From a virus: a stretch of 53,410 nt of DNA. A program made the translations under genes and the position numbers. The notes below the pieces were generated by a model. That model saw only the letters and a list, made by a program, of their open reading frames with translations, made no database searches and was not told where the DNA came from. Where the stretch lies: IMG/VR virus record IMGVR_UViG_3300025728_000003, positions 1 to 53,410 of that record. The stretch is one strand, 5' to 3'. This document shows positions 25,336 to 28,598 of this stretch, piece by piece (within the stretch, counting starts at the first letter, position 1; each line of letters begins with the position of its first letter).

Positions 25336-25423
25336 TTCCATCCGCTACTCACTAATAATGCACGCGGCCAGCCTGGTCGCGATGCTCATAATCTTCGAGG
25401 GGATTCGATTGTGGCATTACTAG
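25319..25423 (+). CDS. 34-residue membrane peptide
   Basis: Frame MRLLLNSIRYSLIMHAASLV continuing MLIIFEGIRLWHY. One probable helix. It overlaps the preceding gene by 17 bases and the helicase GTG start by 13, in a different frame from each. Contains the helicase ribosome binding site GAGGGG within its own coding sequence. Confidence 0.4.
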   Translation: MRLLLNSIRYSLIMHAASLVAMLIIFEGIRLWHY

Positions 25424-28206
25424 GATTTCAGAGGCCGGTAGTTGCCGCATGCATGAAGCATGTTCGCACTAAGCAATCAATTGAATTTGAGGGGCTCAGC
25501 ATTCACCCACCTTTATGCGTGACCGCTTCTGTATCTTCCGGGAAAAGTCTCATGATTTCCCACCTGGCAGAAGCTGTTCATTCAGCGGGAGTCAGCAAGG
25601 GCAATCGTGTCAGAGTTATGGTGATGGCTAGGGCTGGAATTCTTGTTGAGCAGGATAGCGAGGCTGCATGGTCGATTGATTTGAAGAATTCCGTTTATTC
25701 GGCTTCAGCTTTCGGCGGCCGAAAATCTCTGTATTACGACGTCGTGTTCTGCTCTGAGGGCACAATAGCAAGGGCCCTAGATGTTCGTTTTGCAGCCGAT
25801 AAGCCATGGATCCCTGACATGGTCATCATTGATGAATGCTTCCGTGCGGGGACGCTAATCGATGGCCTGGCGATTGAGAATATCAGCACAGGCGACATGG
25901 TGTGGTCATTCAATCATGCCAATGGTAAAATGGAGAGGCGCCGAGTTGTTCAGACCTTTAAGTCTAGACCTTCTCAGCTTTGCACGGTAAAGCTTGAGTC
26001 TGGCGAGTCAATCGTCTGCACTCAAGGTCATCCATTTTACGTTCCGGGAGAGGGATATGTTGCAGCCGCATCACTCAAGAAAGGCGCCAATGTCGCACAA
26101 ATGCACAATGTGCGAGAACGAAGTATTTCTAGAGAAACCCCATCAAAGGCAGGCATTCAATCAGACCGGGAGATGCTATTGCTCAAGGGTATGCTCGGGA
26201 AAGTACAAGGCAATAATTTGCGGCCAAATCGTTTCGGAGACCAACAAAAAATATGCATCGGCACGAATGAAACTGAAGAACCCGATGCACAAGGAAGAGA
26301 ACAGAACAAAGGTTTCGGAGACGTTGAAGTCGATGGGTCATCGCCCTCCAGTGAGAGGTGGAAATGGAAAATCTCACCCTGTTCTACAGATAGTGATTTT
26401 CGATCTTCTGGAGGCGTCGGGGCATTCGCCACAAATGGAGTTTGTGGTTCCTACCAAGATGGGAAAATTCAGCGGATGGCCGCTCCATTACAAGCTGGAT
26501 GTATCCATTCCGCCACTGAAACTCTGCCTGGAGTTGGACGGAAAGAGCCACGGAACTCTGAAGCGGAAGGCGCAGGATGCGAGGAAAGACCAATTCTTGA
26601 TTTCTCAAGGGTGGACAGTGTTGAGATTCACCAACGAACGGATGATGGGGAGTTCGGAGGAATGCTTCCAGGAGGTTTTGTCTACAATTTCGAGGTTGAA
26701 GGAAACCACAACTATTTCGCGGATGGAGTCCTAGTTCACAACTGCCACCAAGTGCCATGGGATGAGCCTGAAAGCCAGGCCATGAAGACGTTGCTGCACT
26801 TCTATCGTCTTCGCCCGCATCTTCGTGTAATCGGCATGACAGGCTCGCCTTTTAGGGGCATTGATTCAATCATTGGACCGTTCTGGCAGAAGTTCGCCTC
26901 CATTGAACCTGATGATCCCTTCTATCCGGAAGGTGGCGTAGGCAATGGCGTGATCAGCACGGAAGCCATGCTTGACGGCGGCTGGATCGTAGGGCCGCAA
27001 TTTGGCGTACCCATCGCACATGGGTACGATTTTAGTTCTGTCGATTGGAATGTCGATGACGAAAGAGAGTTGAACAGACTCACGGAATCAGAGCAGTTGC
27101 TTGCCGAGATTCTTCGCGAAGTGATCGCTATTTCCAGTAAGCGCAAAGGCGTCCTGATCTTCGCTTCGACCAAGCGTCATGCGAGAAATATCGCGAAAAT
27201 GCTGGTTATGCTTGGAGTGCCAGAAGAGTGGGTTGGCCTAGTGGTCGATTCGACTCCGGAGAAAGACAAGACGCGCATCCTGAAAGCAGCTCAGACTGGC
27301 GAGATAAAGTTCACAGTAAATGTCGGTGTCCTGACCACGGGAATCAACGTGCCATGGTGGGACACCCTTTGTTTCCTAAGGCCGATTGGGACATTGACAC
27401 TGCTAACCCAGGCTATCGGTCGCGTACTGCGCCTCCTGATTGGCCCCGATGAAATACCCATGATCGAGCGCGATGCACTGACCGCCGAAGAGCGCAAAGA
27501 CCTGATCGCCGCGAGTGATAAACCAGACGCCCTGATCTTGGACTTTGCCGGCGTAATGGATCGCCTCGGCAAACTCTACGAAAACCCAGTACTAGAACAA
27601 GCCGAACTCGAGCGCGCCAAAAAGCAACACGAAACAATCCTGTGCCCAGAATGCGGCGAAGAGAACTCAATGCATGCCAGGCGGTGCATTGCTACGGATC
27701 GAAATACGAAGAAGCGCTGCGAGCATTTCTGGTCGTTTCGGTTGTGTCCGAATTGCGGCGAGAAAAACGATGTGGTTGCGCGCCAATGCCGCAATCAGGA
27801 GTGCGCTGCCGAGTTGATAGATCCCAATGAAAAACTGAGCAAGACCCACTTCAAGGATGCTGAGGCGATACCAGTTGTCAGCATGGATCTGAGCTGCGGT
27901 CCGGGCGGTGCACTGTACGTCAAATGGGAGTTGTCAGATGGCCGCAAGCCAATCGAGATCTACTACCCGAACGCCTCCAAGAATCCGCTGGTGACAACGC
28001 GAGCATGGTTCAATTCATTCTGCAAAGAGCATGTCGAAAGCGAGAAGGGGCAATTCATGGCGAGACGCATGAAGAACACCCAGGCAGTGGCTATGAAGAC
28101 GATATTCAGGGTGCCGACGCATATTATTGCCAGGCAGAACGACAAGGGGAAATGGACCGTGGGTAAGCGGTATTTTGCGGTTGAGCGGGTGGAGGAGATG
28201 GTATGA
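25411..28206 (+). CDS. SF2 DECH-box helicase precursor interrupted by an intein
   Basis: 931-codon precursor from GTG at 25411 (GAGGGG 8 bases upstream). Motif I is ASVSSGKS (39-46) and motif II begins VIIDE at 138-142. Residues 143-444 are an intein, and the sequence resumes CHQVPWDEP at 445, so splicing restores DECHQ. Motif III-like GMTGSP and motif VI QAIGRVLRL follow. A C-terminal zinc part starts near residue 743 (CPECGEEN, CPNCGEKN, CRNQEC). The mature protein would be 629 residues. A replication or recombination DNA helicase, as in T5 D10 or T4 UvsW-like enzymes (known DECH helicases). Confidence 0.9.
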   Translation: MALLGFQRPVVAACMKHVRTKQSIEFEGLSIHPPLCVTASVSSGKSLMISHLAEAVHSAGVSKGNRVRVMVMARAGILVEQDSEAAWSIDLKNSVYSASAFGGRKSLYYDVVFCSEGTIARALDVRFAADKPWIPDMVIIDECFRAGTLIDGLAIENISTGDMVWSFNHANGKMERRRVVQTFKSRPSQLCTVKLESGESIVCTQGHPFYVPGEGYVAAASLKKGANVAQMHNVRERSISRETPSKAGIQSDREMLLLKGMLGKVQGNNLRPNRFGDQQKICIGTNETEEPDAQGREQNKGFGDVEVDGSSPSSERWKWKISPCSTDSDFRSSGGVGAFATNGVCGSYQDGKIQRMAAPLQAGCIHSATETLPGVGRKEPRNSEAEGAGCEERPILDFSRVDSVEIHQRTDDGEFGGMLPGGFVYNFEVEGNHNYFADGVLVHNCHQVPWDEPESQAMKTLLHFYRLRPHLRVIGMTGSPFRGIDSIIGPFWQKFASIEPDDPFYPEGGVGNGVISTEAMLDGGWIVGPQFGVPIAHGYDFSSVDWNVDDERELNRLTESEQLLAEILREVIAISSKRKGVLIFASTKRHARNIAKMLVMLGVPEEWVGLVVDSTPEKDKTRILKAAQTGEIKFTVNVGVLTTGINVPWWDTLCFLRPIGTLTLLTQAIGRVLRLLIGPDEIPMIERDALTAEERKDLIAASDKPDALILDFAGVMDRLGKLYENPVLEQAELERAKKQHETILCPECGEENSMHARRCIATDRNTKKRCEHFWSFRLCPNCGEKNDVVARQCRNQECAAELIDPNEKLSKTHFKDAEAIPVVSMDLSCGPGGALYVKWELSDGRKPIEIYYPNASKNPLVTTRAWFNSFCKEHVESEKGQFMARRMKNTQAVAMKTIFRVPTHIIARQNDKGKWTVGKRYFAVERVEEMV
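25837..26742 (+). mobile_element. Intein inside helicase motif II, carrying a nested endonuclease gene in another frame
   Basis: 302 residues. Splicing block A starts with the Cys1 nucleophile: CFRAGTLIDGLAIENISTGD. Block B is CTQGHPFYV with the conserved Thr..His. The C-terminal blocks NFEVEGNHNYFADGVLVHN end in the His-Asn pair followed by Cys+1 (codon 26743). All residues needed for class 1 splicing are present. Between about residues 227 and 420 the intein frame has no LAGLIDADG or HNH motif and a Ser/Gly/Glu/Arg-rich composition. That stretch is occupied in the +1 frame by the endonuclease gene at 26090-26734. Confidence 0.93.
26090..26734 (+). CDS. Homing endonuclease, Vsr/EDxHD type, nested out of frame in the intein
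   Basis: 214 residues, +1 frame relative to the helicase. ATG at 26090 with AGAAAGG 5 bases upstream; stop TAG at 26732-26734, 8 bases before the intein ends. Residues 5-35 form a zinc finger (CTMC ... RCYCSRVC). Residues 54-84 (RMKLKNPMHKEENRTKVSET) resemble a NUMOD3-like DNA-binding repeat. Residues 133-181 are a Vsr/DUF559-like nuclease core: HYKLDVSI, CLELDGKSH (E148, D150, H154), DARKDQFLISQGWTVLRFTN. Codons in this frame look like normal phage codons while the overlapping intein frame is rich in AGA, AGG, CGA and GGA, so this is the constrained frame. Probably cuts intein-less helicase alleles to spread the intein (inference). Confidence 0.85.
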   Translation: MSHKCTMCENEVFLEKPHQRQAFNQTGRCYCSRVCSGKYKAIICGQIVSETNKKYASARMKLKNPMHKEENRTKVSETLKSMGHRPPVRGGNGKSHPVLQIVIFDLLEASGHSPQMEFVVPTKMGKFSGWPLHYKLDVSIPPLKLCLELDGKSHGTLKRKAQDARKDQFLISQGWTVLRFTNERMMGSSEECFQEVLSTISRLKETTTISRMES

Positions 28207-28598
28207 AGCTGACAAAAAAGCAGCGCGAAGACCTAAAAATGAAGTTTGGCGGAAACTGCTCATATTGCGGATGCGTGCTAGGCAAAACTTGGCATGCTGA
28301 TCATTTTGTTGCATGTCGCCGAGAACTTGAGTCATTCCGTACGGAGTCTGGGTATCGGTTGCGCTCAGTAGGCGACGGAAGCCCAGAGGCCAATGTGATC
28401 GAAAATTTCATGCCTTCTTGCGCTCCATGCAATATCAGTAAATCGGTATATCCCCTAGAGAGCTGGCGCCAATATCTGCAAAAGCAGATTGAATACCTGA
28501 ATGACTACAACAAGAAATACAGAATGGCGAAGGCATATGGCTTGATTCAGGAAACCGGTGCCGAGGTGGTTTTCTACTTTGAGAAGGTCGACCAATGA
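28203..28598 (+). CDS. HNH endonuclease
   Basis: 131 residues, ATGA-coupled to the helicase stop. CSYCGC at 21-26, WHADHFVAC with the HNH His-Asp-His core at about 34-42, and NFMPSCAPCNISKS (about 64-77) form a classic zinc-bound HNH nuclease. A helical C-terminus follows. It could be a free-standing homing enzyme or a recombination/packaging nuclease; its position between helicase and VRR-NUC favours DNA metabolism. Confidence 0.88.
   Translation: MKLTKKQREDLKMKFGGNCSYCGCVLGKTWHADHFVACRRELESFRTESGYRLRSVGDGSPEANVIENFMPSCAPCNISKSVYPLESWRQYLQKQIEYLNDYNKKYRMAKAYGLIQETGAEVVFYFEKVDQ

What the first reader, a model, noticed from the sequence alone, without database searches (positions are those of the whole stretch)
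26090..26734. Complete homing endonuclease gene overprinted out of frame inside an intein
Seen: in the +1 frame of the helicase gene, fully inside the intein, a 214-codon gene has its own ATG, an AGAAAGG sequence 5 bases upstream and a TAG 8 bases before the intein ends. It encodes a zinc finger, a NUMOD3-like stretch and a Vsr-like core (E148, D150, H154 in CLELDGKSH; GWTVLRF). The same 645 bp stay open in the intein frame. With uniform codon odds, about 190 codons open by chance is of order 1 in 10,000. Known: intein endonucleases are normally fused in frame (LAGLIDADG or HNH), and EDxHD enzymes are free-standing or intron-linked. Inference: a mini-intein was colonised by an out-of-frame endonuclease, with the intein frame kept open as a linker, so splicing and mobility come from two overlapping genes. 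I know of no well-established precedent, but a literature check is needed.
Basis: partly seen in the sequence, partly recalled or inferred. Interest (0 to 1): 0.96.

Follow-up and report, generated by a model that had tools for sequence, protein, structure and literature searches.

The report
Nuclease gene hidden inside intein
In this phage and many relatives, a self-splicing insert in a helicase gene also carries, in a shifted reading frame of the same DNA, a complete DNA-cutting enzyme that probably spreads the insert, so one stretch of DNA serves as two genes.

Summary
Confirmed, and much more than a curiosity of one genome. The helicase (25411-28206) carries a class-1 intein (25837-26742). 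A 214-225-codon EDxHD/Vsr-like endonuclease lies wholly inside it in the +1 frame. The same arrangement was found in 94 of 104 related loci (79 distinct at <80% identity): always inside an intein, always in the +1 phase, with no stop in the intein frame where about 610-810 are expected. The endonuclease frame is under purifying selection (dN/dS-like ratio 0.07-0.24 in three close Vibrio phage comparisons). The intein frame over the same bases is only kept open and is predicted disordered, while both intein ends keep the splicing residues and the Hint fold. phi673 and phi674 differ by exactly this 906-bp element in otherwise ~99% identical flanks. Relatives include mini-inteins, free-standing copies beside intein-less helicases, and 'fractured' loci in which the linker has filled with stops and the intein is split. 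Best reading: a mobile intein whose splicing and homing functions are two overlapping genes. Splicing, cleavage and expression are untested. Precedents: ShiLan out-of-frame HNH (not an intein) and Dassa's split inteins with EDxHD endonucleases. One relevant preprint could not be read.

The parts
25411..28206 (+). Phage RadD-like/SF2 DExH helicase gene (host gene; exteins plus intein)
   Evidence: phrog_16 DNA helicase E=3.5e-53, NCBIfam RadD E=1.9e-65 (below its curated cut-off), Pfam Helicase_C E=3.6e-9
25837..26742 (+). Class-1 intein, 302 aa, inserted in motif II (DE|C...HN|CH)
   Evidence: Pfam Intein_splicing and PT-HINT E~2e-10; exact empty site DECHQVP in Pseudomonas phage Amjad_SA
25837..26106 (+). 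Intein N-terminal splicing part (Cys1; block B T62xxH65)
   Evidence: AF2 pLDDT 96-98; C1, T62 and H65 invariant in 48 homologues
26107..26586 (+). Linker in the intein frame (residues 91-250), kept open but unstructured
   Evidence: AF2 pLDDT about 44-58; no stops
26587..26742 (+). Intein C-terminal splicing part (VYN...HN), all but its last 8 bases double-coded with the endonuclease C-terminus
   Evidence: AF2 pLDDT 91-98; V282, H301 and N302 invariant, Y283 and N284 >=90%; TIGR01443 hit
26090..26734 (+). EDxHD/Vsr-like (DUF559) homing endonuclease gene, 214 aa, +1 frame
   Evidence: Pfam DUF559 E=1.2e-11; profile match to PDB 3hrl (8e-13) and I-Bth0305I 3r3p (0.002); AF2 pLDDT 94; Foldseek top hits 3hrl and 3r3p
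26057..26734 (+). Alternative longer endonuclease ORF (225 aa) from ATG 26057
   Evidence: SD GGGAGAGGG 26046-26054, duplex -7.4 kcal/mol
26078..26084 (+). AGAAAGG, weak Shine-Dalgarno-like site for ATG 26090
   Evidence: sequence; duplex -3.2 kcal/mol
26102..26194 (+). Zinc-finger-like CxxC...YCSxxC of the endonuclease (C5, C8, C31, C35)
   Evidence: invariant in the 7-member alignment
26498..26551 (+). Putative active-site segment: D137, E148, D150, H154
   Evidence: D137 and H154 invariant, E148 and D150 >=90% in 85 homologues
26609..26629 (+). GWTVLRF of the endonuclease; the same bases encode the RVDSVEI strand of the intein
   Evidence: G174, W175, R179 invariant; intein frame RVDSVE

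Best explanation
This is a mobile class-1 intein whose two functions are encoded by two overlapping genes. In the helicase frame, the N- and C-terminal Hint segments fold together around a disordered linker of about 160 residues and splice out, leaving an intact DECH helicase motif (splicing inferred). In the +1 frame, an internal ATG starts a free EDxHD/Vsr-like endonuclease (internal initiation inferred) that cuts the intein-less helicase site, so that the whole element is copied in by repair (cleavage inferred; natural mobility supported by phi673/phi674). The +1 phase is the only one of the two shifted phases in which the host frame can always be kept open without changing the endonuclease protein: a host-frame stop arises only from NNT followed by AA/AG/GA, and NNT-to-NNC is always synonymous.
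For: Nested arrangement in 94 of 104 loci, always +1 phase, all with intein motifs around the endonuclease. 79 distinct endonucleases: 0 host-frame stops against 608-809 expected, while 8 non-nested relatives have 9-29. In the overlap core, endonuclease-synonymous/intein-changing substitutions 299 against 150 expected, the reverse 91 against 165; dN/dS-like ratio 0.07, 0.07 and 0.24 for the endonuclease in three related Vibrio comparisons. Shine-Dalgarno strength at the predicted start -6.0 against -2.5 kcal/mol at internal ATGs, p=3e-12. Endonuclease model pLDDT 94 with I-Bth0305I among the top fold hits; intein ends pLDDT >90, linker about 50. Empty sites; phi673/phi674 presence/absence with a cluster of substitutions in the first 78 bp beside the site. 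Phase argument: 87 of 87 proteins allow zero stops in the used phase, 2 of 87 in the other.
Against: No biochemical evidence here for splicing, translation of the endonuclease or cleavage. The window's 26090 start has a weak Shine-Dalgarno and the true start is unsettled. The window has no close relative (best endonuclease identity 48%), so selection was measured on relatives, not on this copy. The substitution test is a simple count, not a full overlapping-gene model.
Confidence: 0.9

Rival explanations
1. The endonuclease is expressed by a +1 ribosomal frameshift from the helicase/intein frame, giving a Hint-N/endonuclease fusion rather than a free protein.
For: The endonuclease frame in the window is open 99 bases upstream of ATG 26090, and such open overlap is common among relatives.
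Against: In several loci (for example L013, L017, L027, L030, L036, L096) the endonuclease frame begins at its ATG right after a stop, leaving almost no room to shift. Start sites carry Shine-Dalgarno enrichment.
Confidence: 0.06
2. The insert is removed as RNA (group I/II intron) and the open intein frame is incidental.
For: EDxHD enzymes occur in introns (PMC3943268; PMC12350094).
Against: No Rfam match even at E<=1. Introns need no open frame, yet 79 distinct loci have none of about 600-800 expected stops. Splicing residues are conserved exactly at the insert ends.
Confidence: 0.01
3. The endonuclease frame is a decaying passenger that is no longer functional.
For: HEN-less mini-inteins and remnants exist (L142, L146, L157; L131, L143, L168), as expected from a homing cycle.
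Against: Low dN/dS-like ratios, conserved active-site residues across 85 homologues, no nonsense change in the closest pairs, and recent presence/absence in phi673/phi674. In the window itself all active-site residues are intact.
Confidence: 0.05
4. Assembly or sequencing indels placed an ordinary in-frame endonuclease out of frame.
For: The window is a single metagenomic contig.
Against: The same phase is seen in more than 90 contigs and isolate genomes, including finished phages CP-T1, MR14 and phi673.
Confidence: 0.005

Closest known systems
ShiLan domain: out-of-frame HNH endonuclease inside a phage DNA methylase (Arsenault, Gosselin and Gogarten 2025, PMC11855218)
   Same: A homing nuclease overprinted out of frame in a host gene whose own frame stays open; stop codon near the end of the insert.
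   Different: ShiLan is HNH, has no detectable splicing domain, lies in the third frame and is thought to stay in the protein. Here the nuclease is EDxHD/Vsr-like, the phase is +1 and the insert is an intein.
Fractured genes: split inteins with the EDxHD homing endonuclease family (Dassa et al. 2009, NAR 37:2560; not readable here, known by title, citation and memory)
   Same: Same nuclease kind, intein-associated, encoded separately from the splicing parts.
   Different: There the intein is split into two genes; here one contiguous intein frame runs through the endonuclease gene. Close relatives found here (L058, L061, L065, L217-L225) are of the fractured type.
I-Bth0305I (PDB 3r3p), group I intron EDxHD endonuclease
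   Same: Nuclease fold and motif.
   Different: Intron-encoded, not overlapping an intein.
Canonical mobile inteins with LAGLIDADG or HNH domains fused in frame
   Same: Hint splicing fold; endonuclease lies between block B and the C-terminal blocks; homing into an empty site.
   Different: Endonuclease is a separate protein read in another frame, and its C-terminus double-codes the C-terminal splicing blocks.
Gosselin et al. [quoted passage not shown]
   Same: Title, and a citation in PMC11855218 about overlapping frames in actinobacteriophages, suggest possibly related architectures.
   Different: Not held in the library, so content unknown; must be read before a priority claim.

Membership tests
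Class-1 intein | Cys/Ser1, block B TxxH, C-terminal His-Asn and C+1 nucleophile | tested here: met
   C1, T62, H65, H301, N302 invariant in 48 homologues; C+1 in window
Class-1 intein | Hint fold | tested here: met
   AF2 model; Foldseek hits to mini-inteins and BIL domains, E 1e-7 to 1e-3
Class-1 intein | Insertion in a conserved motif with an intein-less allele | tested here: met
   DECHQVP in Amjad_SA; phi674 DEVHH
Class-1 intein | Protein splicing activity | not testable with these tools
   needs expression of the precursor
EDxHD/Vsr-like homing endonuclease | Acidic and His catalytic residues (E, D, H, D) in a Vsr/PD-(D/E)xK-type fold | tested here: met
   D137, E148, D150, H154 conserved; 3hrl and 3r3p are best matches by sequence and fold; Foldseek E only 0.003-0.006
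EDxHD/Vsr-like homing endonuclease | Additional DNA-binding module(s) | tested here: inconclusive
   zinc-finger-like Cys motif and conserved helical NPM region; no NUMOD called by Pfam
EDxHD/Vsr-like homing endonuclease | Site-specific cleavage of the empty allele | not testable with these tools
   mobility only inferred from phi673/phi674
Fractured gene / split intein | Host gene and intein broken into two separate ORFs | tested here: not met
   window frame is continuous; met in relatives L058, L061, L065, L217-L225
ShiLan-type out-of-frame insertion | Homing nuclease gene out of frame in an open host frame | tested here: met
ShiLan-type out-of-frame insertion | HNH nuclease and no splicing domain | tested here: not met
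   EDxHD/DUF559 and Hint domain present
Group I/II intron | Intron RNA structure | tested here: not met
   no Rfam match at E<=1

The most novel reading that the evidence does not exclude
The out-of-frame nested endonuclease is the missing evolutionary step that produces natural split inteins. Once the separately translated nuclease sits in the +1 frame of a contiguous intein, losing the open linker (stops accumulating) and gaining a start codon before the C-terminal part yields a fractured gene. The fractured relatives still have both halves in one frame, with the endonuclease in +1 overlapping the halves by about 103-106 and 133-139 bases.
Probability: 0.5. Interest if true: 0.92.

Novelty: new variant of a known kind. 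Interest (0 to 1): 0.87.

Why it matters
Inteins are taught as one polypeptide with splicing and homing domains fused in frame. Here a large family in phages and bacterial contigs has uncoupled them into two overlapping genes, so the nuclease can be made, regulated, lost or replaced without altering the spliced precursor. It gives an unusually clean natural overlapping-gene pair (one frame selected for protein, the other mainly for openness), suggests why one phase is used, and offers a concrete, testable route to natural split inteins. Annotation hides these nucleases: in the nested phage records read here only the helicase is annotated over the nuclease gene.

Tried and rejected
Single-sequence pattern searches with the window's endonuclease found nothing in viral contigs or genome contigs; an alignment was needed. 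Intron hypothesis rejected. In-frame fusion: not seen in this clade, only in distant L087/L088. 'Unique to this genome' rejected. The tree could not polarise nested versus free-standing or fractured forms: most deep branches are poorly supported, so direction of evolution is left open. PDB fold search gave no hit below E=0.001 for the endonuclease (top 0.003), so family placement rests mainly on sequence profiles with fold agreement. Key papers (Dassa 2009, Gorbalenya 1998, Gosselin 2025 preprint) were not readable.

Full report
WHAT IS THERE. The window is a 53,410-base IMG/VR virus record with a terminase, tail sheath and tape-measure gene, so a contractile-tailed phage. Its RadD-like DExH helicase (25411-28206) is interrupted in motif II by a 302-residue intein...IIDE|CFRAGT...VHN|CHQVP.... 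Pseudomonas phage Amjad_SA has the uninterrupted DECHQVP, which exactly matches the predicted spliced product. Read in the +1 frame, 26090-26734 encodes a 214-residue protein with Pfam DUF559 at E=1.2e-11, while the helicase frame over the same region gives Intein_splicing and PT-HINT at about 2e-10. One correction: ATG 26057 has a stronger Shine-Dalgarno site than ATG 26090 (-7.4 against -3.2 kcal/mol), so the protein may be 225 residues.

NOT CHANCE, NOT AN ARTEFACT. A tblastn search of phage genomes found 77 records with a match, 40 covering at least 80% of the protein; the full-length matches listed lie under helicase-type genes. Six were read in detail (MR14, phi673, 159E43-1b, 104E43.1, CP-T1, 1.088.O) and all have the nuclease in the +1 frame of the helicase. 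Profile searches then brought in 80 viral contigs and 40 bacterial-genome contigs. Of the 104 loci examined, 94 have the nuclease frame completely inside a longer open frame of the same phase; the other frame has stops. All 94 show intein splicing motifs in that longer frame (L021 ends before the C-terminal motif). After removing near-copies (80% identity), 79 nested nucleases remain. They have 0 stops in the host frame; recoding each protein with its own synonymous codons predicts 608, with host-gene codon usage 809. The eight non-nested relatives carry 9-29 stops each, about as predicted, and no homologue has an intermediate number. To avoid ascertainment by the nuclease, inteins were sought by their N-terminal domain alone: 75 of 80 contain the nuclease (a few only as a remnant) in the +1 phase, four are mini-inteins without it, one is broken or incomplete. 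The two samples share some contigs.

SELECTION. In eight pairs of loci, changes silent for the nuclease but altering the intein frame occur 299 times (150 expected); the reverse occurs 91 times (165 expected). Among three Vibrio phage relatives the dN/dS-like ratio is 0.07, 0.07 and 0.24 for the nuclease and 1.8-2.7 for the overlapped intein frame. So the linker's amino acids are not preserved; only its openness is. These are counts, not a full overlapping-gene model. In the last ~150 bases both frames matter: the bases of GWTVLRF (nuclease) also encode RVDSVEI (intein), both conserved, and the substitution rate there is lower than in the core (13% against 20% of sites, from the counts).

STRUCTURE. 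The nuclease model (82-sequence alignment) has mean pLDDT 94; nearest solved structures are 3hrl and the I-Bth0305I catalytic domain 3r3p, by profile (8e-13, 0.002) and by fold (top two, E 0.003-0.006). The intein model is confident only at residues 1-90 and about 250-302, forming a Hint fold; residues 91-250 have pLDDT about 44-58.

EXPRESSION AND PHASE. In 77 distinct nested loci with a candidate start, the start has stronger anti-Shine-Dalgarno pairing than internal ATGs (median -6.0 against -2.5 kcal/mol, p=3e-12). It lies a median 87 codons after Cys1, just after the N-terminal splicing segment, and the stop is inside the intein in 92 of 93 loci, most often 8, 11, 23, 44 or 50 bases from its end. 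In this phase a host stop can arise only from NNT followed by AA, AG or GA, and NNT-to-NNC is always synonymous: all 87 proteins can reach zero host stops, against 2 of 87 in the other shifted phase. That explains how the phase can be kept open; a single ancestral insertion would also explain its uniformity.

MOBILITY. Corynebacterium phages phi673 and phi674 have ~99% identical helicase flanks but only phi673 has the 906-bp element; seven substitutions cluster in the 78 bp just right of the site, as after co-conversion, and the flanking codon differs (GTG in DEVHH of phi674, TGT in phi673). Vibrio relatives show the full element (1.088.O, K391, 1.194.O), a 150-residue mini-intein (K389) and an empty site (1.285.O, DEAHH). 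Host genes outside the DExH family include a terminase large subunit (L067), clamp-loader/DnaX-like proteins (L069, L071) and SNF2 helicases (L070, L073, L074, L076, L078, L104).

RELATED ARRANGEMENTS. Free-standing copies lie immediately upstream of intein-less helicases (L043, L050, L090). In one clade (ten contigs with both halves: L058, L061, L065, L066 and L217, L218, L221, L223-L225) the helicase and intein are split into two ORFs that remain in the same frame, with the nuclease in +1 overlapping them by about 103-106 and 133-139 bases and 15-35 stops between. This is the fractured-gene pattern. Pectobacterium phage Amona has a split intein at the corresponding helicase motif with a LAGLIDADG nuclease in the other phase and 13 linker stops, as the phase argument would predict, but it is one case. 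The tree does not settle direction.

KNOWN AND NOT KNOWN. The full-text library held one close precedent, the ShiLan out-of-frame HNH insertion, which lacks a splicing domain (PMC11855218). EDxHD enzymes in split inteins trace to Dassa et al. 2009, not readable here (cited in PMC12350094). A 2025 preprint on non-canonical actinobacteriophage inteins was not available, so a prior report cannot be excluded. Shown here: anatomy, conservation, selection, empty sites and presence/absence. Inferred: splicing, internal initiation, cleavage and homing.

Noticed in passing
L008:1905-5015 (Pectobacterium phage Amona): A split intein at the corresponding helicase motif-II position (IDE|C...HN|C) with a LAGLIDADG endonuclease ORF between, in the +2 phase and overlapping both halves; 13 stops in the linker frame.
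   Followed up: partly
L076:161-4189: One SNF2 helicase gene with LAGLIDADG_3 and Hom_end_hint domains in its own frame (apparently an in-frame homing intein) as well as an out-of-frame Vsr-like intein further on.
   Followed up: no
L087 and L088:2447-4645: A distant Vsr-like endonuclease fused in frame within an intein of what looks like a phage head-morphogenesis gene.
   Followed up: no
L043, L050, L090: Free-standing members of the endonuclease family directly upstream of intein-less DExH helicases.
   Followed up: partly
L131, L143, L168, L206, L207: Short inteins (145-184 aa) with out-of-frame remnants of the endonuclease, apparent deletion derivatives.
   Followed up: partly
window 28203-28598: HNH endonuclease gene (phrog_2118, E=3e-44) overlapping the helicase stop, next to a gene of phrog_824.
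   Followed up: no
L215 (Rhodovastum atsumiense plasmid): A weak endonuclease match inside an SNF2-related gene, possibly another nested case.
   Followed up: no
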